NCBI RefSeq assembly: GCF_040958095.1
Contig: NC_091160.1
Location: forward strand, 43,164,822 to 43,228,821
Source: Procambarus clarkii
Lineage: Eukaryota; Arthropoda; Malacostraca; Decapoda; Cambaridae
DNA length: 64,000 nt
Reading direction: 5' to 3'
In this document: positions 1-33,248 of the stretch, one piece after another
How the letters are laid out: each line of letters opens with the position of its first letter
How positions within the stretch are numbered: the first letter of the stretch is position 1
The notes under the pieces: generated by a model
What the model was told of the DNA's origin: nothing
The model's input: only the letters and a program-made list of their open reading frames with translations
Database searches by the model: none
Made by a program: the position numbers and the translations under genes

Positions 1-736
1 TAATTATTGTTACTGTATTACAACACTGCAAACAAGGCATGACGGGGTGTATCTCATCGAAACTTAATACCGAACAAGTTACAGGATGTCTATTCCTATA
101 TTTTCTTCAGAAGGTCAGATGCAACACAAAGGCAATGGTTTCATGCTCAAGCCACACTGTAGGACTGAGAATATTAAAAGTTTAACCCACAGGGTTATCA
201 ACTGAACTGCCTACCCACCAAAGCCATAACTACTAAAACTGCCAAATTTTAAAATATACCTGGAAAAGATAAAGGCAAATAGGCCCCCCCCCCCCCAAAC
301 AAGCCACTGGCTTCCTGTCCACATTCTTCCTAAGCATTAAAAAGGAAAAATCCAAGTACAGTACTGTAATATCTGTGCTACACAGTTCCAGCACTGCAGT
401 GTTAAAATTAGTATTGCTTTAGTTCATGTTTTATTTTTATTAACATTGTAGGCCCCGAGTTAAGCAATGCATTGGGGGTGCTATACAGATGATAGACCCT
501 GCCAGTCTGCTAAATTGCAAAATTATTACCTAGTTACAACAAAATTTATAAGAAATTTGTGCACAAGCTATTTTAATGCCAGGCCTTTCCAGCAAGGTCT
601 AGTAATTTTCCCCACAAGAGATCTCGAAAATATATAGTACAATGAGGGCCACAATTGCAAGGGCAACTGCCCAGTGTGCCCATGCTTTAAGACTACTGTT
701 TTAGTGTAAACTATGGATCTAATTATTGTACAGTAC

Positions 737-3500
737 CTTGTATGCATGGTAGAATGGCGTGACAACATGTGTGGGTGCCTGAAGAGGCTTCATTGTGCGG
801 TTATTGTAATGCACCTCTGTCACATCCCCGTCACTGTTTGTGCACAAGATGGGCCACAGAGCCGAATACTGCCGACCTTCATTCTTTATGGAAAATCTGG
901 AGAAAGACAAAAATGTTTTGTCATAGGCATCTAAAGGATTTTAATGTGTGAACAGCTCACTGTTATCACTTCCTACAACCAAGCCATCCTATGGTAACCC
1001 AAAATACTGTTAAAGTAAAAGTAAATATTGCATTTTTGTGGACTTGCCATGTAGGGGAAAATAGGGCAATTCAGTGATGGTTATCTCTGGGAAGAGATTC
1101 GGGCCTACTCCATTATCACCTATTCTCATACCACATTTACCTATTCAAGACCTGCAGCCTTGAGAACAACAACTCGCAAACATCTAGACAGCGGACTACC
1201 GCCCCTACACCACAGCCCGTCATCCTCCTCACACCTGGGAGCTCACGCCACTGGCCAGGGAACTAGCCCAGTGGTAGTTAGCGCGAGCCGGTTCCCTAGT
1301 TATCTTTACTCCAGTGCCACCTGGACGGCCATCGTTCCATATATGTGGAGGCTAGCCAGCTCCAGCAAGCCAGATTACTCGGTGCTCTACTGACTAGACC
1401 TGTTTACATACCTGTGTGGTAATAGATTTACACACAGTCTTGGCTCGGTATTCCCACAATTTTCCAATTTGCACATCAACGTAAATTTGATAGTCTTTTG
1501 ATTTGCACTTTGTATAAAGCCAAGCTTTGATATTGTGTTTTGTAGTTTAACATTCAGTATTAAGTTTGTCTTATCCTACAGTTCTCACAATGAAGTTAAA
1601 TGGCAGTAATTTTTTTCACTTGTTTTTTTGTTTAATATATGGCTGACATGCTATCTGCCCTAGAGGTTCTTTACCACCATTCATTTTTTCCCATCTATTA
1701 GCTTTAGGCCATACCCTCATGGATGTGTATTAACAATATCTGTTATATTGTAACAGATATTGTTAAGAGATCAAGATCCCCCCCCCTTTTTTTTTACAGT
1801 TGGATTTTAAAATTTAACTAGGAAAGATCATAAAGGCAAATAATTGTTGTGGGGGGGGGATTATCAACAGGCCTCGAGTATTTATACAAGCTTCCTGTCC
1901 CAAACAAAATGAATCAATACCTGCCAAGTACCAAGCTACACATTTTAGCAAGGAAGTAACATCTCAAGTAGGGAATTTCTTACAGGTAGGCATCTACAGT
2001 ATACTTCAAGATGCTACTCCACTACAGAGAAACTACTGTACTTGCAATATTAAGAACTACCTGCCATGTAACTACCCAAAAATGTAGACACTTAAACTGT
2101 ACCTGACAGGTGTAGAGGCAAGGACATGGAAAGCTGCTGGCTCATTTTCTTCTAGCCATCTAGCAATTCTGAAGCCATCAGTAAAGAAGGATCGTCCACC
2201 TGGGTCAGAGCCAGAAAGTTTGGGGTCGTTGGCCTGTTAGAGAAAATCCAATATTTAGGAAGCCCTGAAAATTATGTAGACTTTAGCAATTCAAGAATTA
2301 TTTTAACCCCACCATCCCCCACACTATCACAATTTTTTTGTTGTATACAACATGTGAAAGTACTTTGAGACAGTGGAGAAGCTGCATCCCAGGACTCTTC
2401 TCCCTGTAGTTCATGTCTGTGTGATGAGCCAGGGCAACACCAGTATATGCCAGATGTGAACCTTCCACTGGCTTGTTGATTACGTCAAATGTGTGACCAT
2501 ATTGGGTCTCTTTCACATAGGCAAATCTTTTCACAACATCTACAATTTTGTTAACCTTAGGTGGCACTCCACGGAGAACGGCAACGCCATACTGAAAAAA
2601 AAATCAAAACTTTAGAAAAGGCACTTATCTTGCAAGTACTGTATAGCATGCAAGAATTTTTCACAATCAGTATTCTCTATTAAATAACAGCTTAAAATAA
2701 GCAAGATTTAGTACATCATAATGTACCATATTGAAAACTTGCCCTGTAAAACATATCCAGCCACTGTTTGAGACCACTGTCAGTCTCCATCACCTCATTA
2801 TAAGACATTTCGGGGAAGCTGGACCAGATGGTTGTCCGATCCCACAATTCAAATTCTGGGCGTTGGGTCAACAGCTCCATGTCCATGCTATCACTAGCAA
2901 ATTTATTGTGCATGAAGGATTTCCCATACTTTAATAGCCTGTGAACAAGAACATTTTCTTAACACACATTTTGCACCTACCCATGTCAGTTTTGTTTTGC
3001 CCAGTAACATGTGCAGTCAACTAGCAGACCTTTATGTAAAAGGACAAATTCCTCAGCTTGGCAACTTTACTAACCATTACTAAACACTAATTCCATGCCA
3101 TCTCCATAAGCAATATACAATGGTGTAGGGAACTAAAACCTTAATGCACTTAACTACAGCAATATAATACTAGTCACCAACACAGATTAGGAGACTTTTT
3201 CATGCAATCCATCAGAAGTAACTTTGGTAAAAATCTCTTAAAACAGATTAGAGCTTAACCAATGAACATTATCCTCCACTAAACTATTAGAATGCTTCAA
3301 GATGTCTAAGAAATAAGTACCATGCTGGGTCATATTCTGACTTGTGATTCTCTCCTTCCTCAGACCAAATGATCTCTAGTTTGCCTGCATCATTCATGGT
3401 AAGGGAGAGTGGCTTTATGTTCACATCGAGAGTTGGAGAGTCCACCAGTTTCTGGCTTGTGCTGGGGTCCACACATCTAGGGCACTGGCAATTGTCCCTC
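737..3500 (-). pseudogene. BBOX1: partial second copy of BBOX1 (exons 2-6)
   Basis: Near-identical to the BBOX1 segment 25806-29316. Exons: 3321-3500 (exon 2, cut by the N gap two bases before its acceptor), 2743-2938, 2364-2591, 2103-2233 and 737-896. Exon 4 here reads in frame from the acceptor as YGVAVLRGVPPK, which matches the family in length and motif and joins exon 3 (...WLDMFYR) in phase 0. The downstream copy has one extra base at this point. So this truncated copy holds the better exon 4. It is labelled pseudogene only because it is incomplete in the window. It is more likely an unmerged allele or contig overlap than a real second gene. Exons 7-8 would lie left of position 1. Confidence 0.8.
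1730..1766. repeat. perfect 16-bp hairpin (also 27541-27577)
   Basis: TTAACAATATCTGTTA and its exact complement with a 5-base loop, in a BBOX1 intron. Confidence 0.9.
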
Positions 3501-4000
3501 NNNNNNNNNNNNNNNNNNNNNNNNNNNNNNNNNNNNNNNNNNNNNNNNNNNNNNNNNNNNNNNNNNNNNNNNNNNNNNNNNNNNNNNNNNNNNNNNNNNN
3601 NNNNNNNNNNNNNNNNNNNNNNNNNNNNNNNNNNNNNNNNNNNNNNNNNNNNNNNNNNNNNNNNNNNNNNNNNNNNNNNNNNNNNNNNNNNNNNNNNNNN
3701 NNNNNNNNNNNNNNNNNNNNNNNNNNNNNNNNNNNNNNNNNNNNNNNNNNNNNNNNNNNNNNNNNNNNNNNNNNNNNNNNNNNNNNNNNNNNNNNNNNNN
3801 NNNNNNNNNNNNNNNNNNNNNNNNNNNNNNNNNNNNNNNNNNNNNNNNNNNNNNNNNNNNNNNNNNNNNNNNNNNNNNNNNNNNNNNNNNNNNNNNNNNN
3901 NNNNNNNNNNNNNNNNNNNNNNNNNNNNNNNNNNNNNNNNNNNNNNNNNNNNNNNNNNNNNNNNNNNNNNNNNNNNNNNNNNNNNNNNNNNNNNNNNNNN
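3501..4000. other. assembly gap, 500 N
   Basis: Exactly 500 N, the fixed length scaffolders use for a gap of unknown size. The sequence left of it continues elsewhere (29317 onward) in the other copy. The sequence right of it does not match that continuation. Confidence 0.98.
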
Positions 4001-5085: not shown

Positions 5086-5729
5086 GGTACATGTCCCCCC
5101 CCCCCCATACATCACCACATAATTTTCAAACTCCTTAAATGGGTTGACCCAAATACTAGTTGGGTCAAACTCCAGAATGAAGAATATATACAAACAATTT
5201 GAGGCGCATCCGATCCCTCGATCGTCATCGCCCCTCAACCAACAATAACATACAATTTGCACACTGGATGTTTCATCCATAGGTAACTCATTTTTAAATA
5301 CTGTACTATATTCTCCACATTTTTAAGTTTTGTACGCCCACACATACTGTACAACCTATCCTATGGTTCCCGCATCGTCATGAGTTCGGTTAGGCAAGAC
5401 AATAATATTTATGCTAACTGCTTCATGTTGTAATGTACTGTACCTGTAGCCTCCAGAAAACTGCTGTAGGATTACTGCTACAGTTGTAAGTGCTGTAAGT
5501 TAACTACATGAACTTAACAATTTATCCTAGTGACATAACACCATGCTAACTGTTGCTATCCAATATTCGGCCTTCTTGGCACCATTCCCTCACTCTGTCC
5601 TCACACTCGGCCCCTATACTGTCCTCATAGCCCTTCCATGTGCTAGATAGTCATGATGACTTAGTGGCTCTCTCCTCATAATTACGTTCGTCATGTTCCT
5701 TCATACCAGTGAAAGTGCACGCTGGCATC
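5086..5729. other. noncoding, poly-C tract and a short repeat
   Basis: Poly-C at about 5095-5106. A short repeat beginning GCGCATCCGATCCC at about 5206 recurs at 8282. Three TACTGTA heptamers (about 5300, 5345, 5437). No gene seen. Confidence 0.6.
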
Positions 5730-6145
5730 CCGCCAGCCAAGTCCCGTCTACCCACCAGCCAAATCCTGTCAACCCGCCAGCCAAGTCCTGTCAACCCGCC
5801 AGCCAAGTCCTGTCAACCCGCCAGCCAAGTCCCGTCAACCCGCCAGCGAAGTCAAGTCAACCCGCCAGCCAAGTTCCGTCAACCCGCCAGCCAAGTTCCG
5901 TCAACCCGCCAGCCAAGTCCCGTCAACCCGCCAGCCAAGTCCCGTCAACCCGCCAGCCAAGTCCCGTCAACCCGCCAGCCAAGTCCCGTCAACCCGCCAG
6001 CCAAGTCCCGTCAACCCGCCAGCCAAGTCCCGTCAACCCGCCAGCCAAGTCCCGTCAACCCGCCAGCCAAGTCCCGTCAACCCGCCAGCCAAGTCCCGTC
6101 AACCCGCCAGCCAAGTCCCGTCAACCCGCCAGCCAAGTCCCGTCC
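5730..6145. repeat. 22-bp minisatellite, about 19 units
   Basis: Unit begins CCGCCAGCCAAGTCCCGTCA. The first six or seven units vary (CTG or TTC in place of CCC, one with GAAGTCAAG); the rest are nearly identical, suggesting growth from the right end. No stop codon in the unit, so it reads open in more than one frame. Confidence 0.95.
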
Positions 6146-6777
6146 ACTAAAGCCACAAAAAACGTCTAATTAAGCCAGAGAAAGCAAAATCAAGCCAAAT
6201 ACAAAGCAAGTTAGGCCAAATCAACCCAATAAAAGCCTTAAGAGAGCCAAGCCGAGGAGGTAATGACTCAACCACTCAACACTAACTCAATTATCACCAA
6301 GAAATCTACACACTATTGATGCAATTCCTTCATTCCATAATAGTCAGAAGACATAGAGCCTCGACATGTCGAGATATAAGCTACATTATACACAGCTGAG
6401 TTAGAAGACTCACCAAATATGAGAAAAGGCGCCAAAACTCAGTCCGGTGAGAAACTTCACATCACAACAACAACAATGACACATTCCTCAGGGACCCCGC
6501 GCTTGTCATTTCAAATATCATTGTGGACCATAATTTACAAACATACTCGAATCTAATCTAAGTTAATCTACACTAATCTGTGCTACACTAACCTAATCTA
6601 ACGAATCAAGTAATTTGGTTTTGCTATTTTATTTTTTGAGTTATGACGTCACTGTGATGTCATGAAGGGACCTCTTTATTTTTTTTTAGAATCCTCTCTG
6701 CCAAATATTTCCTTGTTTTTTTTAGTATTGCTTATCTTTAAACTCAATTACTAAATTACTCTAATATTAATATTTAA
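6146..6777. other. no gene seen
   Basis: AT-rich, with lysine/proline-like decay of the minisatellite edge and a short CTAATCTAA-type run near 6550-6600. Confidence 0.5.
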
Positions 6778-7690
6778 GAACATAAGAACATAAGAACAAA
6801 GGTAACTGCAGAAGGCCTATTGGCCCATACGAGGCAGCTCCTATTCTATAACCACCCAATCCCACTCATATACTTGTCCAACCCGTGCTTGAAACAATCG
6901 AGGGACCCCACCTCCACAATGTTACGCGGCAATTGGTTCCACAAATCAACAACCCTGTTACTGAACCAGTATTTACCCAAGTCTTTCCTAAATCTAAACT
7001 TATCCAATTTATATCCATTGTTTCGTGTTCTGTCCTGTGTTGATACTTTTAATACCCTATTAATATCCCCCCGGTTATGTCCATTCATCCACTTGTAAAC
7101 CTCTATCATGTCACCCCTAACTCTTCGCCTTTCCAGTGAATGCAACTTAAGCTTTGTTAATCTTTCTTCATATGAAAGATTTCTAATTTGGGGAATTAAC
7201 TTAGTCATCCTACGCTGGACACGTTCAAGTGAATTTATATCCATTCTATAATATGGCGACCAAAACTGAACTGCATAATCTAAATGGGGCCTAACTAGAG
7301 CAAGATATAGCTTGAGAACCACACCAGGTGTCTTGTTACTAACGCTGCGATTAATAAATCCAAGTGTCCGATTTGCCTTATTACGAACATTTATGCATTG
7401 ATCCTTTTGTTTTAAATTCTTACTAATCATAACTCCCAGATCCCTTTCGCAATCCGACTTTCGCAATCACAACACCATCTAGCTCGTATCTTGTAACTCT
7501 ATCATCATTACCTAACCTCAGAACTTTACATTTATCAGCATTAAACTGCATCTGCCAATCCTTTGACCATTTCAAAACCCTATCTAGATCAACTTGAAGT
7601 GATAGTGAGTCCTCCTCCGAATTAATTTCCCTACCGATTTTCGTATCATCGGCAAATTTGCAAATGTTGCTACTCAAACCTACTTATTTA
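6778..7690 (-). mobile_element. LINE-A, 5'-truncated RT 3' half
   Basis: Two overlapping - strand frames split by one frameshift near 7440 give FADDTKIGREIN (RT active site), WQMQFNADKCKVLRLG, CERDLGVMIS, YLALVRPHLDYAVQFW, SYEERLTKLKLHSLERRRVR, FSNRVVDLWNQLP and a stop near 6846. The element ends in tandem TTCTTATG units (6778-6800, read on -). This is the RT-thumb and C-terminal part of a CR1/Jockey-like LINE; the exact clade cannot be set by eye. Confidence 0.85.
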
Positions 7691-8280
7691 CAATAAGAAA
7701 ATAATTTCTTCTTCAGATATTCGTAAGCTTAATATCTTCTAATATGGCATAACCTTCCTATCAAATATATCAATCAATCAATTCATGTTTATCCAAAAGA
7801 ATGTGTATACAAAGAACATAAGGGTAATGTACAAATGTAGGGACAGGAGTTACACATACTAATGAAGCAACTACAGGATTACGCAAAACGTTTTTCGCAA
7901 AAAATCTAACCGAATAGCATATTATTACATATTATATGTGGCATATTATTCATGTTTTATACATAGCTATTTAATATCATTACAAAATCATTAATTTGCT
8001 TCACTAAATATTATATTACATTATCGCGGGCTGGAATATACCGCTCAATCATCATACTTTAAAATACAATAACCCATTACATCTAATTTTATAGTAATCC
8101 CCTGTTTATGTTTATAATATAAATAAATGAATTAACCCTAAATAGGTAATTCATAATGAATAAGTAATTTGGCCAATATGTCCATGTTCAATATATGAGG
8201 TGAGTTTACACTCGGGCTGCCTTGAACAGCTGACACAGTCAACAACAAGCAACAGGTGGGAGCTAATATTTTGGTGTTTG
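7691..8280. other. no gene seen
   Basis: AT-rich unique sequence with no open frame resembling a protein. Confidence 0.5.
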
Positions 8281-8600
8281 GGCGCATCCGATCCCATGAT
8301 CGTCGTCGCCCCTAAATCAACACAACATAATATTTTGGTGCTCATCATCAGCCTCTTTACGGGCTATTCATGCCCGTGCCACTTCTTGGGGTGGCTTAAT
8401 CTTTATCAATCAATCAGCCTCAAACGGGAGACATCTCCCGTCACGCAGGGTGCAGTCACACCTCCACAGATCTCCAGTATCAGCTCTTGATACTGGTAAT
8501 GGCTCAAAAGGGTCACCATTTACGGGCTATTCATGCCCGTGCCAACTTTTGGGTGGCTTAATCTTTATCAATCAATCAATCATCAGCCTCTGGAGAGGTA
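8281..8600 (+). repeat. two copies of a short interspersed repeat
   Basis: A unit with ACGGGC...GCCCGT (small hairpin) and GGGTGGCTTAATCTTTATCA, followed by AATC repeats, occurs at about 8358-8420 and again at 8521-8585. The GCGCATCCGATCCC motif shared with 5206 precedes it. Confidence 0.7.
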
Positions 8601-8652
8601 CATGAGGCTTAGCCCCGTCCCTCTCTTTCATACCAACAACAACCTCTACCAA

Positions 8653-9930: not shown

Positions 9931-9966
9931 ACATTGTATTGGTGTAGGGGCCGGAGGGGAATCGAA

Positions 9967-10481: not shown

Positions 10482-13400
10482 ATGGCTTACTCTGATCTTA
10501 AGGATGAGATTTGCAGTACTTGGCTGCAGTTAAGTGCCGAGCAAATGGCACAAGTTCGTTTAGCTCTGTTGGGAGTTTCTAGCTCGGTTGGGGAGTTTCC
10601 ACGAATGCGAGAGATCAGTAGATGTGCTGATCTGTCTTCTGCTCTGATTCTACTGGAAAAATGGATGCTTCTTACACCTCAGAAGTAAGCTATCCCTGCA
10701 TAAAGCTGTTTGTAGTGACTATAAAGAGAATGCATTAAATTTTGATTCATATATTTACCTAAAAGTCATCATCACTAGTGGCCTCAAGGGCAACATGAAA
10801 CTGGGGGCTTGTCAAAGGTTTCACAAGTATTGCTGAGCTTTTTCAGCTGAATTTTCAAATGAAATTTTCAACATGTGACCATAGTCGGCAGAATGACATG
10901 CAGGACATATGTCAAATATTACTCTTTTATATTGTATGCCTGTATACATGCATTTTTTAATTTGCATATGGGTTACGAAGTAGCTGGAGGAAAATCATAT
11001 ACTGTACTTGAATATGGTTTTCACAGCTTTAATCTACTTGGTTCCTGCATGATATCCTGAATTAACACAAATCAAACTTATAAGAAGGGAATTACAAATC
11101 ATAATAAAGATTTCTACAACAAGAACAAATTAATATTGTCTAATGAATAAGATATTTCTAAATATCACAGGATATATTCCTTCAAAAGTTTCACAATCCA
11201 GCTTAAAAGTATAGTTTATGGGAAAAATAGGGTTATATGCCTGAGACCTCCAAATGTCTCCTAATGTCTACCATCCTCCCAACCACTTGGGCTGGACAGT
11301 AGAGCGACGGTCTCGCTTCATGCAGGTCAGCGTTCAATCCCCGACCGTCCAAGTGGTTGGGCACCATTCCTTTTCCCCCATCCCAACCCAAATACTTATC
11401 CTGACCCCTTTCAAGTCCTGCATAGTTGTAATTGCTTGGTGCTTATCCCTGATAATTCCCCCCCCCCCCCTGAGACCTCCAAATGGTCACTTTTTGCCAC
11501 TGCACTTGATAAAACACATACAATATTTTAACATTAATGTTTAATGCTCCCTCCACTTTGCAGCTACATATTCAGCACATAATGAGGTCCAGAATGCTTT
11601 TGCATGCACATGACTAATCATTATTATAAGGGACAAATCATAATTTGTTTATTACAGTATATTATATCACTACTTTTCATTTGAAGTCCTATGGCTTTAT
11701 TGCCTCTTTTGTTCTAATTCTTTTCTGGAGTTTAAATCAGACCAACCAAAAATTACTTTTCACATATAATTTTTCATTTATATGTGGAAAATTACCTGCC
11801 CCCTCTATAGTTCCATTCAAAATTCTTTTTGTTTTGTATAATGTATATAGTGTATATAGACAAAAATAGTTTAGTCTACATTTTTAATATAATAGAAAAA
11901 CATGGACCAACTAACACGTGAAGTTAGAAAAGGTTCAGAGATACGTCACCAGGCTAGGCCCCGAGCTAAAGAGTACAGTATGAGCTACGAGGAAAGATTG
12001 CTGGAACTAAACCTCACGACACTGAAAGACACAAGTTAGGGGAAACATCACTACCTATAAAATTCTCAGAGGAATTGACAGGGTAGATAAACTGTTTAGC
12101 ATGGGTGGTACGTAAACAAAGGGACACAAGTGGAAACTTAGTACCCAAATGAACCACAGGGACATTTGAAAGAACTTTTTTCAGTGTCAGAGTAGTTAAC
12201 AGATGAAATGCATTTGGCAGTGATGTGGTGGAGGCAGATTCTAAAAAGAGTTTCGAATGTACTGTAGATATGATAGAGCCCAGTAGGCTCAGAAATCTGT
12301 ACACCAGTTGATTGATAGTTGAGAGGTGAAACCAAAGATCCGAAGCTCAACCCCCGCAAGCACAACTATGAGAGTACTATACCAGGCCACAGATATGTTC
12401 TGCCTGCCTGCTAGTCAGGCTTAACTAGATTTATTATTGTTTCTGTTGTAGAATAGTGACCATGAGCCCAGCTCATTTGAACTTGGGTCCATGTTTGGTT
12501 CCTGGCTGCAGTTTCAGGTTACAGATTCCTCCTGGCTAGCAAGCAATGATTATTTTCTTTGTGGTATTAGTAGCTGTTGTTAGTTCCAGGTTCTTAAGGG
12601 TTAGTGTGCCTCCTGAGCCCATCCTCTCGAGTTGCCACACTGGACAGAAAATGGTGCACTAAAACACCTGAACCTAACCTAGTAACCCAGGCATAGAAAA
12701 TGTGAATGTTTGTGAGCTACTATGATTTAAAGTACATCATATTTTGTCATTTAAGGATTTTGACATCAAAATGCACAGTATTATTAGTGAGAGGGGACAG
12801 ATTAGCTTCCAATTACTTCTATGTTATGTAAGCCAGAGAGGACCTTGACTTTCTAAATGAGGTCTTGCTCTATTCTCTCTTTTTGCAGCAGACCTTGACC
12901 CTTAAATGGCTTCAATCACAAGCGACAATTTTCCAAATAATTTTTTTTTACATTAGTTTACATTAGGACTTTAAATTAGCTGAGTCATTTAAGGGTTAAG
13001 GTCTATAACACTCGTCTAATTGGTGAATATCCCTGTCCTTAGTTCTGTCTTTCCCGCAGCTGTGTCTGTACCCAAGTTGTTTACTCCAATCCTCCTGGAT
13101 CCAGTTTCCCTCTTCATGGCACATTTTACCTTCTGTTCACCCCATTTTTCATTACCCATATCTGAGAGATGATGTTTCAAGTAATATGAGACCATTCCCT
13201 TCAATGACATGGAGAATATTCAAGTAGAAAAATAATAACAAGAATATATGAATATGTAATTCTAGGTGAAGATAAAGTGGTGAGACTGTCACAAGTATAT
13301 TGGGCATCAGTGTTAAATTTATTGTTTCAGGTGTTTATGCAGTTTTGTTTCACTTGCGAAGATTACTACATATTAAAAATATAATTGTTTATTCCCTGTA

Positions 13401-14407: not shown

Positions 14408-16593
14408 CGTCCTCCTCAGGATATGCTGTAGGCATTTCGATGCTGACTCATGTTAAAGGTTGGGAAGACCAACTAGCAATTAATGCCTCTTGGCAATTAT
14501 ATTTGGTAGTAATAGCACTTGAAAGAGGTATAGAGTGAGCCTTCTCAACTTTATTATGCCCAAAATGCTGTGTATAACCTGTGACTTTATATAATAAACT
14601 CCTTTACCTACTATATAACTACTTCAACATGTCCATTGTATATTGTATGAATAAATTTATAGTTATTACTTTCTTGCAGTGTGTGTGTATCTGAGCGAGA
14701 ATTTACGAGGACGTTGGGCTGATCTTGGACGTAGTCTTGGCTTGGCTAATTTTGTCAGTGAACTGTTTCGTGAACCCACTGTGCGACAAAAAGATAAAGT
14801 ATACCAGGTACAGTAACAGTCTGCATGTAGAACTTGATATGTTTGGCTTTATTAATACAGTATACGTATAATAATTATGTGGTAGTAAAGCTCCTATTTT
14901 ACAAGTGTTTTGGTTTATTGCCTTTCTCTGTGATTAGTGACATTTACAAATTTATAATATACATACAATTTATACTATAATCATGTACTTTTCACAAATA
15001 AACTTATACTTTATTATTTTAGTGCAGAAAAATTATATTGGATTTATTTTGGTACAGTACTGTATTGGGATAGACAGTGGACATGGCTGTAAGAAGCCTA
15101 GTTTCAGTGGTCCATCGTCTTGTGGCACACATTAATTTCCATTGGCAAGGACAGAGAGCCCTGTACCTACTTATATCAAGATTCCCCCTCCCCCCTCTAG
15201 GCCAACTACTTAATGATTGTAAAAGAAGCACACACATTGACTTTACCAGGCTCAAAAGTTTATTTAGCTTATGATTTTCCATGAAAGATCAGGGGAACCC
15301 ATTCCAATAAATAATTATGGAGATGTGGCTTCATGACAGTCTTCAGTAAAATTTCTGGCACCAACTCCAATGGAGGTTAGAATTTGGCTTGAACAACTAA
15401 TTCGAACTTGATAGTTAAATTAAAACCAGCCGTACAATTTCTTCAAAGATGGGTCCATTAATTTTACCATACCCCAAACTTACTTTCGGGCAAAATTTGC
15501 TGACATTATTACTGCTATAAAACGGTATTTAAGGATATTGGGTCACATTCAAAGCTCTTCACAATCAAAATAAAAACTAGCCGTATAATCTATTTTCATA
15601 GTACAGTTGGATTCATCCTTGACTCCCAGTTGGGGATACCAGGTGCAATTTCCAGACAAGACAGAAATGGTTGGGCATGTTTCCTTTCGCCTAATGCATA
15701 CGTTGACCTAGCAGTAAATAGGTTCCTGGGAGTTAGGCCACTGTGGTAGAGCTATATCCTGGTTAAGGTTAGTAGTTCAACGTTGATACTGTACCAGCCT
15801 AAATGGGAATTATCTACTTTTTCTCATGCCAAAACTTCTTAATGATCATGATGAAATATTTTGAAAACCTCTTCCAATTAATAATCTAGGAGATATGGCA
15901 TCAGCCATTACCAGATTACCATTTCTGGCACCTCTAATTACCCATACCGAATTAAAAAAAAAATATTGAGAAAAAAATTATCTGCTGGAATTTACTACAG
16001 TATACGTAACCAGATTTCACCGTGGCTCTGTTTAAATAAATGCCCAGATTCCAAAGATCAGAATTTGGAGGAGATATCGGGTATGCAAAGTTGGTCCATT
16101 ACTTAGAGGGTTGTATGGATTCCTTCGTGCCTCCTTTTGATAATACCGTAACTCACTTAAGAGCGTTGTATGGTGGTCCAGATTTTGAGGGTGCCTCTGT
16201 AATCATAAAAGTTTCCTTGTACTGTACTGTACAATATATCATACCTTTGTACTGTAGTACTAAAAATAATAATGTATAGAATAATTATAAAATTATGAAA
16301 AAAAAAATACTATTATTACTATAAGCAGTTGAATTTACAGTTCAATACTGTATATGTATGTGCACGACTACTTATGTCATTACTGGACTAGAGGTGCGTG
16401 TATATTCATGCGTGCAAATAATGCAGAGCAGTTGTGTATGCAACATTGCATGGTTGTCCTTTTACTGTTGCAGATTTTAGAAGAATACAAAAGGCAAGCA
16501 GAAGGTGACCCAGTGACAGGACTGCTGGAGGCCTTAAAGAACTGTGGACTTAACCGCCAGCGCAATCATATAATTAATGAAATTCTCGCTTAA
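10482..16593 (+). CDS. FADD: FADD-like adaptor (DED plus death domain), 4 coding exons
   Basis: Adaptor that joins death-domain partners to DED-containing initiator caspases; in arthropods it links IMD to the caspase-8 homologue Dredd. Coding exons: 10482-10684, 13487-13671, 14680-14807, 16474-16593. All introns are GT-AG and all phases fit (2, 1, 0), giving about 211 residues, close to human FADD (208). Residues 1-95 form the DED: ADLSSALILLEKWMLLTP, then VDILLWLTEQVGPHTQ and RIEQYKK. A polar linker (SVKQDDNAHSDPLLHH) follows. Residues 126-211 form the death domain: ENLRGRWADLGRSLGL, VRQKDKVYQILEEYKRQAEG, then GLLEALKNCGLNRQRN and the stop. The acceptor TTTTCCAG lies 4 bases before the ATG, so a noncoding first exon probably exists upstream; I could not place it. 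Identity rests on domain order and motif spacing read by eye. Confidence 0.88.
11257..11470 (+). mobile_element. SINE-C with long tRNA-like stem and poly-C tail
   Basis: tRNA-like head: A-box region CAGTAGAGCGACGG and B box GCGTTCAATCCCC. The arms CCAACCACTTGG (11279-11290) and CCAAGTGGTTGG (11349-11360) would give a 12-bp closing stem instead of 7. The body ends in 13 C (11458-11470). TGAGACCTCCAAATG occurs just before (11242-11256) and just after (11471-11485), a 15-bp target-site duplication that fixes both ends. Confidence 0.85.
11915..12385 (+). mobile_element. LINE-B, decayed 3' end
   Basis: Pieces in several frames match LINE-B: YEERLLELNLTTL, then the region of DIRKNFF, and CRYDRA. 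The nucleotide 3' end (AACCCCCGCAAGCACAACTA) matches the copies at 45824, 58743 and 59242. Confidence 0.7.
13769..14010 (+). mobile_element. SINE-A, full copy (tRNA head type 2)
   Basis: Head with GTCGGCCGAGCGGACAGCAC (A box) and GGGTTCGTTCC (B box), then the SINE-A body (ATGGGCAGAGTTTCTTTCAC, GTTACCTAGCAGTAAAATAG, GGACCGGGCCGCGGGGACAC). Lies in FADD intron 2. Confidence 0.85.
14352..14405. repeat. (CT)n microsatellite
   Basis: About 54 bases of pure CT inside FADD intron 2, preceded by a CTGT-rich run (14320-14350). Confidence 0.97.
14808..16473 (+). other. FADD intron 3
   Basis: GT-AG intron of 1.7 kb with one SINE fragment near 15640-15772 and many TACTGTA/TACAGTA heptamers, including back-to-back ones at 15053-15064 and 16220-16231. 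Nothing coding recognised. Confidence 0.75.
15640..15772 (+). mobile_element. SINE-B fragment
   Basis: ACAGAAATGGTTGGGCATGT, then CCTAGCAGTAAATAGGTTCC and TGGGAGTTAGGC. It shares the CCTAGCAGTAAATAGG core with SINE-A but has a different left part and ending. Confidence 0.65.
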
Positions 16594-19983: not shown

Positions 19984-20099
19984 CTTCGAGTCAATTTAGC
20001 CGAGGAAAAATAGTGGGAACGGACACACGTGTTGGATGCAAGGGGAGGCCACAGCAGTCACTAGACACTAACAATGGGCCTACCATGTGGTGCAATGAC

Positions 20100-24608: not shown

Positions 24609-27600
24609 TTACTTGGCTCTCAAGCTATCGTATTTGGAGAAAGCTTCATCAATGTCTACATAGCAGCCCTGTAGATGCCTGTGGGGGAAAAAATAAAATG
24701 TATTTATACATTTATCACAGTACACCACATAGGAAAGGGTAGTCATGTTGGACAATGAGTTATCTTGATCTAGTCATTCTGTCCCATTGGGGTTGGTCCC
24801 ATATAGTTCATTGAATCAAGGTTATACTGTAATCTGAAAAACTATTTTAATCCAAGTCATAATCTACAATGACGGCAAAAGATGACTAGTCTTACCTGTT
24901 CAACCTTGGTAGCATCAAAGGCAGTGCGCCCATGAAGAACTCTTCGATTGTTAAAGGCTACCAGATCACCAGGTACCATGTTGAACTCTAGACATGCAGC
25001 TGGATCACGAAGTTTACTAGAGAACAACTGAAAGAAGCACTTTCTAATTAACTTTGGCACATGGGAAAATATTGCAACAGCTGACACTTTATAATTTCCT
25101 TTATTATGATTTGCATGTTCACATGTTAAATGTTTTAGGTTTTACAAGGCTACCGATTTCACCTTTCCCAATCTGGTTCAATATATTGAATTTCGTTATA
25201 CTGTAAAGTAATTTAGCTGCTAGCAAGTAATGGTAGAGGCATCTTGCAATCTTGAGGATGGGTTGCATGTTATTTCCATGTAGGAATAGGTTTTCCCGTT
25301 TATGAACAAAATTTAATGCGCACACAACATCCGATAATACTGTAGATTTCCTCAACCATTGTGGTATGCACCGTTTTTTGGCAAAATATTTCCATAGTGC
25401 AGTTAAGAATACACACATTTATAAATATTCAGCTAGTGTCAAAATGTTTCCAAAGTTGACACTTGTAAATTGGGAATATATATACACACATTCTGTACAC
25501 GACCCACAAGCACTGGTGGAAGGGCAAAGTGGTCCTACACCTTACACTCCAACTTCAGAATATATTACGGCGAGATGTCTGCATTTCTGAACTTGGGACA
25601 CAAGGTGTAGGACCACTGCCCTTCCAGAGTGCTTGTGGGTTACACTTAGACTAGCTTCAGTAGAGGCTTTCAGACTTCCTATAATTTCAGTAGAAACACA
25701 GCTGTACAATTTTCACAAGTTTGTGGTGGTTTAGTGGCAGAGTACGTGACTGGCAGTGCTGGCGGTTGTAGGTTCGCACCTACTTAAGAGTCCTAGTGGA
25801 TTTTCTAATTATTGTTACTGTATTACAACACTGCAAACAAGGCATGACTAGGTGTATCTCATCGAAACTTAATACCGAACAAGTTACAGGATGTCTATTC
25901 CTATATTTTCTTCAGAAGGTCAGATGCAACACAAAGGCAATGGTTTCATGCTCAAGCCACACTGTAGGACTGAGAATATTAAAAGTTTAACCCACAGGGT
26001 TATCAACTGAACTGCCTACCCACCAAAGCCATAACTACTAAAACTGCCAAATTTTAAAATATACCTGGAAAAGATAAAGGCAAATAGGCCCCCCCCCCCC
26101 CAAACAAGCCACTGGCTTCCTGTCCACATTCTTCCTAAGCATTAAAAAGGAAAAATCCAAGTACAGTACTGTAATATCTGTGCTACACAGTTCCAGCACT
26201 GCAGTGTTAAAATTAGTACAGTATTGCTTTAGTTCATGTTTTATTTTTATTAACATTGTAGGCCCCGAGTTAAGCAATGCATTGGGGGTGCTACACAGAT
26301 GATAGACCCTGCCAGTCTGCTAAATTGCAAAATTATTACCTAGTTACAACAAAATTTATAAGAAATTTGTGCACAAGCTATTTTAATGCCAGGCCTTTCC
26401 AGCAAGGTCTAGTAATTTTCCCCACAAGAGATCTCGAAAATATATAGTACAATGAGGGCCACAATTGCAAGGGCAACTGCCCAGTGTGCCCATGCTTTAA
26501 GACTACTGTTTTAGTGTAAACTATGGATCTAATTATTGTACAGTACCTTGTATGCATGGTAGAATGGCGTGACAACATGTGTGGGTGCCTGAAGAGGCTT
26601 CATTGTGCGGTTATTGTAATGCACCTCTGTCACATCCCCGTCACTGTTTGTGCACAAGATGGGCCACAGAGCCGAATACTGCCGACCTTCATTCTTTATG
26701 GAAAATCTGGAGAAAGACAAAAATGTTTTGTCATAGGCATCTAAAGGATTTTAATGTGTGAACAGCTCACTGTTATCACTTCCTACAACCAAGCCATCCT
26801 ATGGTAACCCAAAATACTGTTAAAGTAAAAGTAAATATTGCATTTTTGTGGACTTGCCATGTAGGGGAAAATAGGGCAATTCAGTGATGGTTATCTCTGG
26901 GAAGAGATTCGGGCCTACTCCATTATCACCTATTCTCATACCACATTTACCTATTCAAGACCTGCAGCCTTGAGAACAACAACTCGCAAACATCTAGACA
27001 GCGGACTACCGCCCCTACACCACAGCCCGTCATCCTCCTCAGCACCTGGGAGCTCACGCCACTGGCCAGGGAACTAGCCCAGTGGTAGTTAGCGCGAGCC
27101 GGTTCCCTAGTTATCTTTACTCCAGTGCCACCTGGACGGCCATCGTTCCATATATGTGGAGGCTAGCCAGCTCCAGCAAGCCAGATTACTCGGTGCTCTA
27201 CTGACTAGACCTGTTTACATACCTGTGTGGTAATAGATTTACACACAGTCTTGGCTCGGTATTCCCACAATTTTCCAATTTGCACATCAACGTAAATTTG
27301 ATAGTCTTTTGATTTGCACTTTGTATAAAGCCAAGCTTTGATATTGTGTTTTGTAGTTTAACATTCAGTATTAAGTTTGTCTTATCCTACAGTTCTCACA
27401 ATGAAGTTAAATGGCAGTAATTTTTTTCACTTGTTTTTTTGTTTAATATATGGCTGACATGCTATCTGCCCTAGAGGTTCTTTACCACCATTCATTTTTT
27501 CCCATCTATTAGCTTTAGGCCATACCCTCATGGATGTGTATTAACAATATCTGTTATATTGTAACAGATATTGTTAAGAGATCAAGATCCCCCCCCCCTC

Positions 27601-30522
27601 TTTTTTTTACAGTTGGATTTTAAAATTTAACTAGGAAAGATCATAAAGGCAAATAATTGTTGTGGGGGGGGGGGGGATTATCAACAGGCCTCGAGTATTT
27701 ATACAAGCTTCCTGTCCCAAACAAAATGAATCAATACCTGCCAAGTACCAAGCTACACATTTTAGCAAGGAAGTAACATCTCAAGTAGGGAATTTCTTAC
27801 AGGTAGGCATCTACAGTATACTTCAAGATGCTACTCCACTACAGAGAAACTACTGTACTTGCAATATTAAGAACTACCTGCCATGTAACTACCCAAAAAT
27901 GTAGACACTTAAACTGTACCTGACAGGTGTAGAGGCAAGGACATGGAAAGCTGCTGGCTCATTTTCTTCTAGCCATCTAGCAATTCTGAAGCCATCAGTA
28001 AAGAAGGATCGTCCACCTGGGTCAGAGCCAGAAAGTTTGGGGTCGTTGGCCTGTTAGAGAAAATCCAATATTTAGGAAGCCCTGAAAATTATGTAGACTT
28101 TAGCAATTCAAGAATTATTTTAACCCCACCATCCCCCACACTATCACAATTTTTTTGTTGTATACAACATGTGAAAGTACTTTGAGACAGTGGAGAAGCT
28201 GCATCCCAGGACTCTTCTCCCTGTAGTTCATGTCTGTGTGATGAGCCAGGGCAACACCAGTATATGCCAGATGTGAACCTTCCACTGGCTTGTTGATTAC
28301 GTCAAATGTGTGACCATATTGGGTCTCTTTCACATAGGCAAATCTTTTCACAACATCTACAATTTTGTTAACCTTAGGTGGCACTCCACGGAGAACGGCA
28401 ACAGCCATACTGAAAAAAAAATCAAAACTTTAGAAAAGGCACTTATCTTGCAAGTACTGTATAGCATGCAAGAATTTTTCACAATCAGTATTCTCTATTA
28501 AATAACAGCTTAAAATAAGCAAGATTTAGTACATCATAATGTACCATATTGAAAACTTGCCCTGTAAAACATATCCAGCCACTGTTTGAGACCACTGTCA
28601 GTCTCCATCACCTCATTATAAGACATTTCGGGGAAGCTGGACCAGATGGTTGTCCGATCCCACAATTCAAATTCTGGGCGTTGGGTCAACAGCTCCATGT
28701 CCATGCTATCACTAGCAAATTTATTGTGCATGAAGGATTTCCCATACTTTAATAGCCTGTGAACAAGAACATTTTCTTAACACACATTTTGCACCTACCC
28801 ATGTCAGTTTTGTTTTGCCCAGTAACATGTGCAGTCAACTAGCAGACCTTTATGTAAAAGGACAAATTCCTCAGCTTGGCAACTTTACTAACCATTACTA
28901 AACACTAATTCCATGCCATCTCCATAAGCAATATACAATGGTGTAGGGAACTAAAACCTTAATGCACTTAACTACAGCAATATAATACTAGTCACCAACA
29001 CAGATTAGGAGACTTTCATGCAATCCATCAGAAGTAACTTTGGTAAAAATCTCTTAAAACAGATTAGAGCTTAACCAATGAACATTATCCTCCACTAAAC
29101 TATTAGAATGCTTCAAGATGTCTAAGAAATAAGTACCATGCTGGGTCATATTCTGACTTGTGATTCTCTCCTTCCTCAGACCAAATGATCTCTAGTTTGC
29201 CTGCATCATTCATGGTAAGGGAGAGTGGCTTTATGTTCACATCGAGAGTTGGAGAGTCCACCAGTTTCTGGCTTGTGCTGGGGTCCACACATCTAGGGCA
29301 CTGGCAATTGTCCCTCAGCTGAAAAGGAAACACCAAAGGGTAAGAAGTTAATTATGAGGAGAAAGTACTAATACAGTACAGGTATGACTAGCAATTTTAA
29401 GGGATAGGGGTACAGGTAGTGAGGGACTCTTCCCCAGCCACTTTGATCATGGGGGATCAAATGCAGACTTGCAAGGAGAAATGTCATTGTATCAACCAGA
29501 CCAAGTGATTGGGTTGAAGGAATATCGGCACACCACCTATTAATCAATGACTTCACTATCTTGGGGAAGTTGACTTAGAATATCCAAAATATTTAATTGT
29601 TATTGCTGTAGTTAGAAAGGAAACTACACAAGGAAATTGCATTAACATTATGCATCAGTAATAAAATTAGTTGGAGCCAAGATTGTGGTTCAATTTGTAG
29701 CACATATATAGTCCAGGTGTTAAGGCGTGTGCTCGAGTGTCCAGGGTACAGGTTCAAATCCTCCTCATGGCCAACACTCAAAAAGGAAGCTATACTGTGT
29801 GCATTAACTAACAACGACACTGGCATTTAAGCCAAATGAAAGGATTTAAATGTATAGTACAAAAATGTTAAGTCACTGTAGCCCAGGCATAGCAAATTTA
29901 TGGCGGCAGGTCAATCTACCAAGATATGTACAAGAATAACTGTTGATGCGACTGTACAGTATTGTAGAAGTCACCGGTTGAACGAGTGCACTATTTAGAT
30001 AAATAGTGTAAAGTATACCAACGATTTTATTACGACAAATTTAAATTGTTAATTTGTCTAGGCTTTCTGGCTACTTTCTGTATGAAAGTACTGAAGTAAT
30101 TATGTATAACCCTAAGAATGTCACCCTCACCCTTTCGGGAATTTTACCCGAAATCTCTAAGTTGTGAACCCACTGCACCAACTACTCTTTCCCACAACCA
30201 GAGCCTCGAGGGTCAGGGCAAGACACCGTAAAATTCTTCCAAAAAATCCATCCACAGCCATATTAAAAAATATATTCCAAATCCAGTTGCATAAAATAGA
30301 AAAATGGGTGTGACCTTTAAAAGCTGCCAGCTTCCTTTCCCCATTAAGGCCATCATGTTGGTCTTCAAGCAAATTCAGGTACATCGTAAACAAGTATGTG
30401 CATACCCAGATGTACTTGAAGTCAGCCGTGGTGTCAGTGTCGAAGATAACTTTGGTGGCAAGATGGTGGGCAGGCAACACAGATGTAATAACGGGCGGGG
30501 TAGCAGTCGAATCGGTCTTCAT
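24609..30522 (-). CDS. BBOX1: gamma-butyrobetaine dioxygenase, 8 coding exons
   Basis: Fe(II)/2-oxoglutarate dioxygenase that turns gamma-butyrobetaine into L-carnitine. Exons (genomic, read right to left): 30406-30522, 29137-29318, 28561-28756, 28181-28409, 27920-28050, 26547-26706, 24896-25027, 24609-24678; about 404 residues, close to the vertebrate enzyme. Visible: exon 1/2 join YIW|LRDNC; zinc-site cysteines in NCQCPRC plus a later His; HHTD iron ligands in exon 4; GGRSFFTDGF in exon 5; PGDLVAF and LHGRTAFD (distal His/Arg) in exon 7; HLQGCYVD then stop in exon 8. The CPRC site fits BBOX better than the sister enzyme TMLHE. Splice phases agree through exon 7. Oddities: intron 3 has a GC donor; exon 4 here carries one extra base that breaks the frame (the copy at 2364-2591 does not); the exon 7/8 phases do not match. 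The ATG at 30522 was chosen because the length before WLRDNC fits the family. Confidence 0.9.
25502..25640. repeat. long imperfect hairpin, arms about 57 bp
   Basis: 25502-25560 pairs with 25585-25640 with a few mismatches and small bulges and a loop of about 24 bases. Key matches: ACCCACAAGCACT with AGTGCTTGTGGGT, and GTCCTACACCTT with AAGGTGTAGGAC. Lies in BBOX1 intron 6. Could be a foldback MITE or a hairpin RNA source. Confidence 0.85.
25720..25795 (+). mobile_element. tRNA-like SINE head or pseudo-tRNA
   Basis: A box TGGTTTAGTGGCAGAG and B box TAGGTTCGCACC at tRNA spacing, but no proper acceptor stem. Confidence 0.45.
25806..29316. repeat. duplicate of 1-3500
   Basis: Second member of the duplication, embedded in continuous sequence with BBOX1 exons 1, 7 and 8 on its flanks, so this is the complete locus. 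It includes a LINE-D remnant at its left edge (about 25826-26130). Confidence 0.95.
25826..26130 (+). mobile_element. LINE-D 3' remnant (also at 21-320)
   Basis: AACACTGCAAACAAGGCATG and the sequence after it track the LINE-D copy at 33615-33760; the part with AGATAAAGGCAAATAGG, poly-C and AAGCCACTGGCTTCC matches its 3' end at 33840-33905. No long open frame. Confidence 0.6.
29690..29790 (+). mobile_element. SINE-D, tRNA-like head
   Basis: GTTAAGGCGTGTGCTCGAGT and B box CAGGTTCAAATCCTCC, then CATGGCC; the same head appears near 50200 and 51315. In BBOX1 intron 1/2. Confidence 0.6.
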
Positions 30523-30548: not shown

Positions 30549-31640
30549 CTGAGTAAATAGGATTACACTAGAAGCTGCTATATGGTGTAATGAGTAGGTG
30601 GTGTGGTGGTGTGCATGGGTATATTTGTGTACCTTGTGGTACAAGTAGACATGATTTATACAATTTTACAAAACAAGAGGGGGATAAATCTTTAAAAATA
30701 CAATTTAGAACCGAGTTTACTTGAGGGGCACCAACACTCTAGAACAGGAAGCTGCCAGCTTTTCAAAATCTTTCCCCTCCGTCCCATTTGCCTTTATGAT
30801 CTTTCCTAGTTAAATTTTAAAATCCAACTGTAAAAAAGACCATTAAGGCAAATGGGGAGACCTTCAATAAGCCACTGGCTTCCCGTCCTTGGGGGCCACT
30901 AGTGTTAGTGGCCCTCATGTAAATTTAATTCAAAATTGTGAGGTTTTTAGAAGGGTTTATCCTCTCATGGATAAACAAAGTCCTTTTAACCCGTCATGTT
31001 AAGAACATAAAACAAAAAGATTCAAATTTGAGAAGTTTAGGTACAGAAAGAAATAAGTAACCAGATATTTAAATAAGGTTGCCATTTTATGTAACAAGCT
31101 ATAGCAAATGGAAAACTAAATGGTGAAGCATTGGTTGAACAATAAGTGGCTAAATATAAACTGGAGCTGCCCGACAGACCAAAACTATGTTCGTTAATGC
31201 TTACATTAATATGCAACCTTTGGGTCCAAATGACACCTGTTTTAATTGCACCCACAAAGTTGCATTGAGCTGTATCAGTAGGTCTAGCACTTGGCATGAA
31301 GTGTGTAGAGTTCATTATTGGCATGTTTAGACACTGGTATAGTATTTGCCATAATTATGCTTAAAGACATGACAGATTAAGTACCTCCTAGAAAGCTGTA
31401 GTAAATTTTGAAAGAATGCACTATATATATTAGCAAATGCCCAATTATCAATTATTTTTTATCAAATGGCACACAAGGCTTTTGAGTCTTACCTACTGTA
31501 CTTCATCCCTCATGGATCATAAAGGCTATTCACCATGTTCCTTGCTCCGCCTTCTCCCCAACTACACACTTGCCAACTAAATAATTCTCTAAATTTAGAA
31601 TTTAGAGGTACAGTCTATAAAGACTGTACCTCTCAATTTG
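30549..31640. other. foldback repeats, no gene seen
   Basis: 30720-30795 and 30830-30915 are inverted versions of the same repeat (LINE-D type 3' end). GAGGTACAGTCT and its complement form a perfect 12-bp hairpin at 31605-31632. Confidence 0.6.
31605..31632. repeat. perfect 12-bp hairpin
   Basis: GAGGTACAGTCT, 4-base loop, then the exact complement. Confidence 0.9.
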
Positions 31641-31644
31641 TTTA

Positions 31645-31960
31645 AGATAAAAACTAAGGACTACCTAATAAATTCCCTGTAGCCTACCTTACCCCTATAT
31701 TGTCAACATTTCTAAACAATGCCATTTGTCAACCTAATTGTATTTGTGCATTTTTCTGCCATGTTCCTTTTTTATTTTTTCTCTACACTTTAATCTCAGT
31801 ATCAAGTATTGGTCTTCAATGTTTTTCCTGCCTGAAACGCTTTGCGTAGTGGCGGCTTTAGGCATTGTATGTACAGTACTAGCTTTATCTATAAATATCA
31901 ATTTTTGTAAAACCTCTTTTATGCATGTACTTTACCTGAATAAACATTTATAAATGTTAT
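31645..31960 (+). mobile_element. LINE-E 3' UTR fragment
   Basis: Follows the 3' UTR of the copy at 53910-54150: GTAGCCTACCTTACCCCTA, TTTCTGCCATGTTCC, GAAACGCTTTGCGTAGTGGC, ending ACCTGAATAAACATTTATAA. Confidence 0.8.
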
Positions 31961-33248
31961 GCAATAGTGCAACTTAAGGCTGGCGTCATGTTCAAATACA
32001 GATGACAATTATGTATGCTAACTGATAAGTTGAACTTAAACAAGCACTTAAAGCTCTTTGTGGTCTAGTGTTCAATAACCAATTATTCTATTTACTGTTG
32101 CCATTATCCAACTTTATCCACAAAAAAAAAAAAAAAGCACAAAATAAACTAACGATTCATCTTTCACAATGTAGGCATTAGGTAAACAACCTAAGCTAAT
32201 GTAACCCTTGGGTAGTAGAACAAGTCTATACTGTATACCCAAATTTGTTATACAAAGAGGTGGCAGTTACTTGCTACAACCCTTGATACATGGCTGTACA
32301 CTTAATACTGTAGTGTCTTTCAACTTCCACAGCTGGTACACCATGTGCAATGGGTCAACTTTCGTGCATGCGAGACTAGACCGACCTCTAGCATGATTGG
32401 CCCTCGAGGACTGTAGGATAGGCACCGCCACCCGCCGCACCACCACCATCGACCACCTCATCGACATCTTGTGGTAAGGGGTTCTGAAAATATATACCAA
32501 TATCAAGACTAGATAAAATAAACTAACACGCTGTAAGAGTAAGAGAGCGGTTAATCCTAATAACCCAATAGTCTGGTAAATTAATGAATCGTGGCAAAAT
32601 GCATGGGCAAATGGCAGGAGTAATTTGGTAGATCACAGCAGACAGCAAGCAAAAATATGAAATGCAAGGGGTAAATAGCCATATATAACCATATTAGTTG
32701 GGTTTTTGGGCTGCTGATAAACTTTTCAAACTTTAATGGCCATGGGGTGAGGCCCCCCCCTCCCCCTGATGTATTACTAAAAACACAGTACATATTTGAT
32801 AGTAAAGTAAGAATGTACTACCTTACCCTAGTACCTGCAGGAGGAAATCTTTAAATCACAATGTAAAATCACTAATACAAGCCATTAAGAAAAATTACTA
32901 ACCATGTCCTCAAATACACCTTATTTCTTTAATTAAACAGTTTAGGCTGTCAACAAGTAATGTAATCAATCATTAACATACCTAAAGTAATTGCAGATTA
33001 ACTCATGGATATAATACAAAGACTTTACATCATGTAACACTGCCCTTCCCCAGTTGTGCAGGTTTGGTTTTATGAATCCAAGGCCAAAAGATTCTTTGTA
33101 CCAGAGACACTAATCGAGAAAAAAAAAAAAATTACTGAAGCAGGATAAATTGGACCAGCAGCCTGGATAACACTAGATGTGCACCTTAACCCCCATGGAC
33201 CATGACATGCTAAAGATTATATAACCTGGAATCTGCCCCCAATTTTTT
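31961..33248. other. no gene seen
   Basis: AT-rich, with poly-C at about 32754-32765 and TACTGTA near 32230 and 32310. No protein-like frame. Confidence 0.5.

What the first reader, a model, noticed from the sequence alone, without database searches (positions are those of the whole stretch)
357..33000. Roughly tenfold excess of TACAGTA/TACTGTA, the Tc1/mariner excision scar
Counting by eye I find about 50 of these two heptamers (reverse complements of each other) in the first 25 kb. Composition predicts about 5. They sit in introns and intergenic DNA with varied flanks, are absent from the FADD and BBOX1 exons, and are rare in LINE bodies and in the repeat-rich 33-64 kb. Established knowledge: when Tc1/mariner elements with CAG...CTG ends excise, repair typically leaves TA-CAG-TA or TA-CTG-TA. 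Inference: the unique DNA here is peppered with thousands-per-genome-scale scars of a very active Tc1-like element or MITE. No transposase is in the window.
Basis: partly seen in the sequence, partly recalled or inferred. Interest (0 to 1): 0.85.

Follow-up and report, generated by a model that had tools for sequence, protein, structure and literature searches.

The report
Dense jumping-gene excision scars
In two stretches of a large animal genome a seven-letter word that matches the known repair scar of cut-and-paste 'Tc1/mariner' jumping genes is several times commoner than chance, and between related repeat copies it appears as a clean five-base gain, so this DNA seems to keep a written record of transposons that jumped in and out.

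Summary
The count is real: 49 TACAGTA/TACTGTA in 1-25,000 (5.1 expected from dinucleotides), 77 in the window (13.5 in shuffles). Seven sites count twice, because 1-3,500 repeats 25,806-29,316. With doubled DNA and arrays removed: 73 against 12.1. A second locus (C22) gives 52 against 5.2, but half of it was fetched after its density was seen. No other TA-N3-TA word is comparable in either. Flanks with five bases removed follow a palindromic rule, (A/T)(A/G)TA(C/T)(A/T): TTAA, CTAA/TTAG and CTAG have 3 of 125 sites, 29 expected. Between repeat copies 6 of 47 five-base gains are of this type, against 4 for all other TANNNTA. LINE copies show none, one or two nested scars at one site, and two near-identical assembly copies differ at 26,215 by TA/TACAGTA. 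Open: the source element (one degraded Tc1-type transposase match, a lower bound; mariner and pogo searches did not complete) and the genome-wide load (a random sample is only about twofold enriched in unmasked DNA). Best reading: footprints of Tc1/mariner-type excision with CAG...CTG ends and a three-base stagger. The footprint is known; the density surprises.

The parts
1..33000. Footprint-rich DNA: 65 TACAGTA/TACTGTA (the two words are reverse complements; coordinates)
26215..26225 (+). AGTA-CAG-TATT, scar state, in one of two near-identical assembly copies
410..415 (+). AGTATT, empty (TA) state of the same place in the other copy
11974..11980 (+). TACAGTA in old LINE 3'-end copy 11929-12400; all three covering siblings have the 5-bp gap, two of them with the TA (the third reads GGATTG)
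12260..12266 (+). TACTGTA in the same LINE copy; all four siblings have the 5-bp gap, three of them with the TA (34830-35260 reads CA); 14 gapped alignments
31872..31878 (+). TACAGTA in a LINE 3'-UTR copy; siblings such as window 54161-54570 are empty, L035 1216-1338 has two nested scars
357..368 (+). Nested pair TACAGTACTGTA (again at 26162-26173 in the doubled copy)
15053..15064 (+). Nested pair TACAGTACTGTA
16220..16231 (+). Nested pair TACTGTACTGTA
1..3500 (+). Copy of 25806-29316 (99.5%); L029+L030 (20 kb just upstream of the window) match 5833-25805, so this is an assembly doubling
3501..4000 (.). 500-N gap between the doubled pieces
33001..64000 (.). Young-repeat-rich part with 12 motifs (6.4 expected by order 1)

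Best explanation
Most of the excess TACAGTA/TACTGTA words in the dense regions are excision footprints. A cut-and-paste element of the Tc1/mariner kind with ends CAG...CTG inserted at a TA (preferring (A/T)(A/G)TA(C/T)(A/T)) and duplicated it. On excision the transposase left three bases of each end; joining of the overhangs, which mismatch in the middle, left TA-CAG-TA or TA-CTG-TA, a net gain of five bases. The new TA was sometimes used again, giving nested scars. Scars piled up in old DNA (excess of about one per 0.4-0.7 kb in the two regions studied) and are rare in the young repeats of 33-64 kb. Shown here: the word excess, its specificity among TANNNTA, the palindromic flank rule, 5-bp gains between copies, serial none/one/two states. 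Inferred: the transposase, the 3-base stagger and end joining (from published Sleeping Beauty footprints), the germline timing, and the source.
For: Specific: 73 vs 12.1, P=1.7e-32, next TANNNTA P=0.009; commonest of 420 arrangements of its letters and of 64 palindrome-like heptamers. C22 locus: 52 vs 5.2, P=9e-34, next TANNNTA 4e-4; L034 27 vs 1.9, L035 25 vs 2.15 in shuffles. Target rule: of 125 sites -1 purine 97, +1 pyrimidine 107, -2 A/T 103, +2 A/T 104; TTAA 1 vs 12.3, CTAA/TTAG 2 vs 11.9, CTAG 0 vs 4.9; R-TA..TA-Y 47/73 vs 188/674 for other TANNNTA, 35/52 vs 100/348 on C22. Gains: 6 of 47 five-bp gains vs 4 for all other TANNNTA; LINE alignments; doubled assembly. Nested: 8 spacing-5 pairs among the 125 sites; GTACAGTACTGTAC at 1215 places in the genome vs 15 for the reversed control, inflated by a tandem array. 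Published SB footprint is TAC(A/T)GTA (PMC3432063, passages).
Against: No source element identified: DDE_3 gave one degraded match; PF01359 and PF03184 did not complete. In 20 random 10-kb stretches the word is 37 vs 27.3, rank 1,245, while satellite words TACACTA (184 vs 37.7) and TAACCTA (124 vs 26.1) lead the TANNNTA list; in unmasked random DNA it is 27 vs 13.6, rank 121, with TACGCTA at the same ratio (8 vs 4.0). I cannot say why the two studied regions are so dense. The six gains were typed from the copy with the gain; in four the partner shown keeps the TA, in two (L035 1515, 4954) it reads TG. Some motifs in repeats elsewhere arose by substitution (L018 4486 and L024 4662 from TACCGTA; L025 satellite). 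Several sites can also be read as a short repeat with a spacer base.
Confidence: 0.85

Rival explanations
1. Short duplication or slippage without a transposon: a few bases are repeated with a spacer (AGTA to AGTACAGTA, TGTA to TGTACTGTA, GTAC to GTACAGTAC).
For: 26,215 and 11,974 read AGTA-C-AGTA, 12,260 reads TGTA-C-TGTA, 31,872 can be read GTAC-A-GTAC. Loss by slippage could also explain the empty state at 410.
Against: It does not predict a single word among TANNNTA nor the two-sided rule with almost no TTAA, TTAG or CTAG. AGTACAGTA makes up only 14 of the 65 words in 1-33 kb. L035 1516 has AG before TACTGTA and so no 4-base repeat.
Confidence: 0.06
2. Word bias: a mutational or low-complexity bias (GTAC- and GTATAC-rich DNA) makes the heptamer common.
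For: GTAC, GTATAC and AGTATAC are also high in 1-33 kb; an order-5 model predicts 52 of the 65.
Against: AGTATAC and its complement occur once each per unit of the 20-bp array at 8654-9109. The 6-mers are high because of the 7-mer: 65 of 91 ACAGTA are TACAGTA. Aligned copies show 5-bp blocks.
Confidence: 0.04
3. The words are ends of decayed MITEs whose termini read TACAGTA (pogo-like CAGTA ends; recalled), not scars.
For: Some elements of the superfamily begin with CAGTA (recalled).
Against: Copies align on both sides of a 5-bp gap, so no element body is left; 84 sites show no strong base preference beyond two bases on each side.
Confidence: 0.03
4. A bound or functional motif kept by selection.
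For: The dense window holds BBOX1.
Against: Gained as an indel in old LINE copies; both orientations are common (34 and 43).
Confidence: 0.01

Closest known systems
Sleeping Beauty (Tc1/mariner) excision footprint TAC(A/T)GTA (PMC3432063, passages; PMC4378557, one passage)
   Same: Same two heptamers, same TA framing, same 5-bp net gain. SB and ZB prefer A/T-rich palindromic sites (PMC7913693, passages).
   Different: Known from induced transposition; here natural and accumulated. In mouse the two words occur at over 300,000 places (about 1.1 per 10 kb if the genome is 2.7 Gb, recalled). Here 25-27 per 10 kb in L034/L035 but only 37 in 200 kb of random sample.
Stowaway MITE footprints in Triticeae introns (PMC1925063, passages)
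   Same: Tc1/mariner-type excision seen as short TIR fragments between TA duplications; repeated use of one site.
   Different: A few loci and other words (TA...GTA, TACTCC...AGTA); not a word excess over long DNA.
DNA transposon excisions between Asian and African rice (PMC4423477, passages)
   Same: Excision polymorphism between genomes.
   Different: 86 of 94 putative excisions (all superfamilies) came with deletion or filler; here one uniform scar is what I can see, and deletions would have escaped my test.

Membership tests
Tc1/mariner excision footprints, Sleeping Beauty type (3-base) | Two TA copies flank a 3-base remnant CAG or CTG | tested here: met
   TACAGTA/TACTGTA is the only TANNNTA in strong excess in both dense regions; in the random sample satellite words lead instead.
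Tc1/mariner excision footprints, Sleeping Beauty type (3-base) | Site alternates with an empty single TA | tested here: met
   6 of 47 five-bp gains (4 of the 6 with TA kept in the partner shown), plus 11974 and nested states.
Tc1/mariner excision footprints, Sleeping Beauty type (3-base) | Palindromic, A/T-rich TA target preference | tested here: met
   (A/T)(A/G)TA(C/T)(A/T), 125 sites.
Tc1/mariner excision footprints, Sleeping Beauty type (3-base) | Source element with TA-CAG...CTG-TA ends and a transposase in the genome | tested here: inconclusive
   One degraded DDE_3 match, 150 of 337 candidates scored; no clear source in 328 kb, one weak fold-back candidate; PF01359, PF03184 and PF01498 did not complete.
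Tc1/mariner excision footprints, Sleeping Beauty type (3-base) | Filled allele and scar allele at one orthologous site | not testable with these tools
   No relative of this genome is held (one search says it has none).
Tc1-type (2-base stagger) footprints | Two bases left per end, e.g. TACATGTA (recalled) | tested here: not met
   TACATGTA is not among the six or five top TA-N4-TA words listed.

The most novel reading that the evidence does not exclude
A 'ghost' transposon: in this 4-Gb genome the scars of a CAG-ended Tc1/mariner-type element greatly outnumber its surviving copies, with perhaps hundreds of thousands of excisions recorded, so that excision has set the word composition of the old DNA; it may still be going on (TA/TACAGTA difference between two near-identical assembly copies), and nested scars may seed 5- and 10-bp tandem arrays such as C1:21577007-21577860.
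Probability: 0.38. Interest if true: 0.85.

Novelty: new variant of a known kind. Interest (0 to 1): 0.73.

Why it matters
Excision normally leaves little that can be counted. Here the scars form a dense, uniform record: each is a target-site choice and a repair outcome, and each is a 5-bp marker that should rarely arise twice by chance. With a second genome this would give rates of insertion and excision, the target rule, the repair outcome and the age of a transposon that may itself be nearly gone. It also warns that word statistics and motif finding in such DNA are distorted by scars.

Tried and rejected
Source by terminal repeats: a perfect 52-bp inverted repeat at 27603-27654/30786-30837 contains TACAGTTGG, but its arms run past the TA and enclose putative BBOX1 exons; not taken as an element. 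In 328 kb, 12 TA-CAG...CTG-TA pairs with 15-nt arms against 1, 0 and 1 in three shuffles; 7 of the 12 lie in L015 and L021, which look repetitive. The fold-back L034 5686-5980 has about 106-bp arms inside its TAs, but the pairing also runs about 24 A/T-rich bases past them, the same weakness as the 52-bp repeat. Recurrent TACAG-starting 15-mers with differing upstream flanks were mostly scars and satellites. An order-5 Markov null was rejected, because the 6-mers are made high by the 7-mer. Age from decay was tried by hand sums (full report) and is weak. Literature: listings (capped at 10-20 rows while several matched hundreds to thousands of papers) showed no report of such a load in an animal genome; the library is open-access only. 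PMC2874221 (passages) prints the SB footprint as TAG(T/A)CTA, unlike; TAGACTA is 19 vs 15.4 and not among the top words listed.
Full report
What was checked. The window (G000:C11:43164822-43228821 of a 4.03-Gb assembly) has 34 TACAGTA and 43 TACTGTA. In 1-25,000 there are 49; order-1 and order-2 Markov models expect 5.1 and 8.4. For the whole window 100 dinucleotide shuffles give 13.5 on average, 27 at most. With the doubled part and four tandem arrays removed, window 1-33,000 plus 20 kb downstream (L031, L032) hold 73 against 12.1.

Specificity. Among TANNNTA words in that 43.0 kb TACAGTA stands alone: P=1.7e-32, the next 0.009. Among other spacings the simple repeats TATATA (1.6e-7) and TATATATA (2.3e-9) are also high, and the longer enriched words mostly contain TACAGTA or TACTGTA. 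It is the commonest of the 420 arrangements of its own letters (73, median 7) and of 64 palindrome-like heptamers. It is not the most enriched heptamer of all: rank 11 by order 2 and 222 by order 5 in 1-33 kb, array and simple-repeat words leading at low order; rank 4 in unmasked window plus flanks.

Decay. Single-substitution neighbours are mildly high. By my hand sums (centre position left out) the excess of neighbours is about 45 against 61 intact and about 22 against 47, which would mean roughly 0.1 substitutions per site on average. Only about half of the excess is in transitions and A-to-G neighbours are not raised, so this is a weak estimate.

A second place. The one DDE_3 match in the genome (L033, C22) happened to hold 12 motifs in 3.3 kb. 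I then fetched its neighbours, so their choice was not blind. L034 holds 27 (1.9 in shuffles) and L035 25 (2.15); 10 of L034's lie in the 1.5 kb that overlap L033, so the new part has 42 in 18.5 kb. Together 52 against 5.2, P=9e-34, next TANNNTA TAAAATA 4.3e-4; satellite words there (GGATGAC and others) are more enriched than TACAGTA. Eight loci on C1 fetched because they hold TACAGTATACAGTA have 34 further motifs in 24.1 kb; that choice is biased.

Random sample, against a strong genome-wide claim. Twenty 10-kb stretches from C1-C20 have 37 motifs against 27.3, rank 1,245 of 8,192; TACACTA (184 vs 37.7) and TAACCTA (124 vs 26.1) lead the TANNNTA list there. In the 85.4 kb not matched elsewhere in the sample and window there are 27 against 13.6, rank 121, with TACGCTA at the same ratio (8 vs 4.0); in the masked 114.5 kb there are 10. 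So the excess is about twofold in random unmasked DNA and four- to tenfold in the two dense regions. Masking against about 300 kb is poor, so much 'unmasked' random DNA may still be young repeat; that is inference. Scaling 13.4 extra words per 200 kb to 4.03 Gb gives about 270,000 scars, good to an order of magnitude at best.

Target rule. With five bases taken out, the flanks of 125 sites read (A/T)(A/G)TA(C/T)(A/T): -2 A/T 103, -1 purine 97, +1 pyrimidine 107, +2 A/T 104. ATAC/GTAT 47 against 16.7, GTAC 18 against 6.6, ATAT 17 against 13.5; TTAA 1 against 12.3, CTAA/TTAG 2 against 11.9, CTAG 0 against 4.9. R-TA..TA-Y holds for 47 of 73 sites against 188 of 674 other TANNNTA (Fisher 1.2e-9), and 35 of 52 against 100 of 348 on C22 (1.6e-7). 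A rule symmetric about the TA is what a TA-targeting transposase would give; SB and ZB prefer A/T-rich palindromes (PMC7913693, passages).

Empty sites. In the LINE copy at 11,929-12,400 both motifs are 5-bp gains relative to every sibling that covers them: three for 11,974 (two with the TA, one GGATTG) and four for 12,260 (three with TA, one CA). Across all held DNA (L029, L030, L033 dropped) repeat alignments show 47 five-bp gains: 6 TACAGTA/TACTGTA, 4 of all other TANNNTA, 37 neither; one 10-bp gain is TACAGTACTGTA. These were typed from the copy with the gain. The partner shown keeps the TA in four of the six (26215, 12258, 31871, L034 677) and reads TG in two (L035 1515, 4954); for L035 1515 another copy, window 53832-54147, has TA there. 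An earlier tally by site (L001-L032 and window) has 103 motif sites with an aligned partner: 6 with a 5-bp-gap partner (4 distinct: 11974, 12260, 26217, 31872), 7 with substitution partners, 88 with identical partners only (those listed are in L029, L030 and the window, that is, the doubling), 2 other. For other TANNNTA it is 6, 561, 594 and 13 of 1,174. Of the 7, L018 4486 and L024 4662 come from TACCGTA in a repeat, L025 from a satellite, and four are poor alignments (65-72%).

Serial states. In a LINE 3'-UTR family one site is empty in five copies, missing with four more bases in a sixth (L013), has one scar in window 31,872, two nested scars in L035 1216-1338, and a different 5-base gain in L035 2330. 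A second site is empty in six copies and scarred in L035 1450-1582. L034 673-684, L034 1474 and L035 near 4,471 show two, one and none.

Recent change. In the 23.5 kb assembled twice the differences are mostly run or array lengths and five substitutions; the one indel of more than 2 bases outside runs and arrays is TA/TACAGTA at 410/26,215. Its direction is unknown, and the copies may be two haplotypes or one assembled twice.

Nested scars. Eight spacing-5 pairs occur among the 125 sites. TACAGTATACAGTA has 998 against 194.

Mechanism and source. Published SB excision leaves TAC(A/T)GTA (PMC3432063, passages). The same words, a TA-centred palindromic rule and 5-bp gains make the same mechanism the best reading. 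The source is open. DDE_3 gave one weak, degraded match, 150 of 337 candidates scored, which hints that Tc1-type transposases are now scarce, but it is a lower bound; mariner and pogo families did not complete. The fold-back L034 5686-5980 is a candidate by its ends only.

Organism. The window has BBOX1-like exons and LINEs with reverse transcriptase.

Noticed in passing
window 1-3500 and 25806-29316; L029-L030: At least 23.5 kb are assembled twice on either side of a 500-N gap, nearly identical apart from run and array lengths; probably an unpurged duplicate contig end.
   Followed up: partly
window 27603-27654 and 30786-30837: Perfect 52-bp inverted repeat enclosing putative BBOX1 exons; the right arm overlaps a 74-bp imperfect hairpin (30783-30856).
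   Followed up: partly
window 8654-9109: 20-bp tandem array CTTAAGGCTACCATAGTATA, about 23 copies, itself rich in GTATAC.
   Followed up: no
window 5729-6144 and 43292-44173: 22-bp and 42-bp arrays that stay open in more than one frame. The frame 42786-44180 starts before the second array with what looks to me like the end of a LINE protein (my reading; Pfam gave only Tautomerase_3).
   Followed up: no
window 52274-57429: A LINE with a 980-aa open frame (54487-57429, endonuclease and reverse transcriptase by Pfam) lies head to head with an 84% relative: 52274-56147 matches its own reverse complement.
   Followed up: no
G000 C1:21577007-21577860: 10-bp-period tandem array holding GTACAGTACTGTAC many times, possibly seeded by nested scars.
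   Followed up: no
L034 5686-5980: 295-bp fold-back with TA-CAGG...CCTG-TA ends; its pairing runs past the TAs into A/T-rich flanks.
   Followed up: partly
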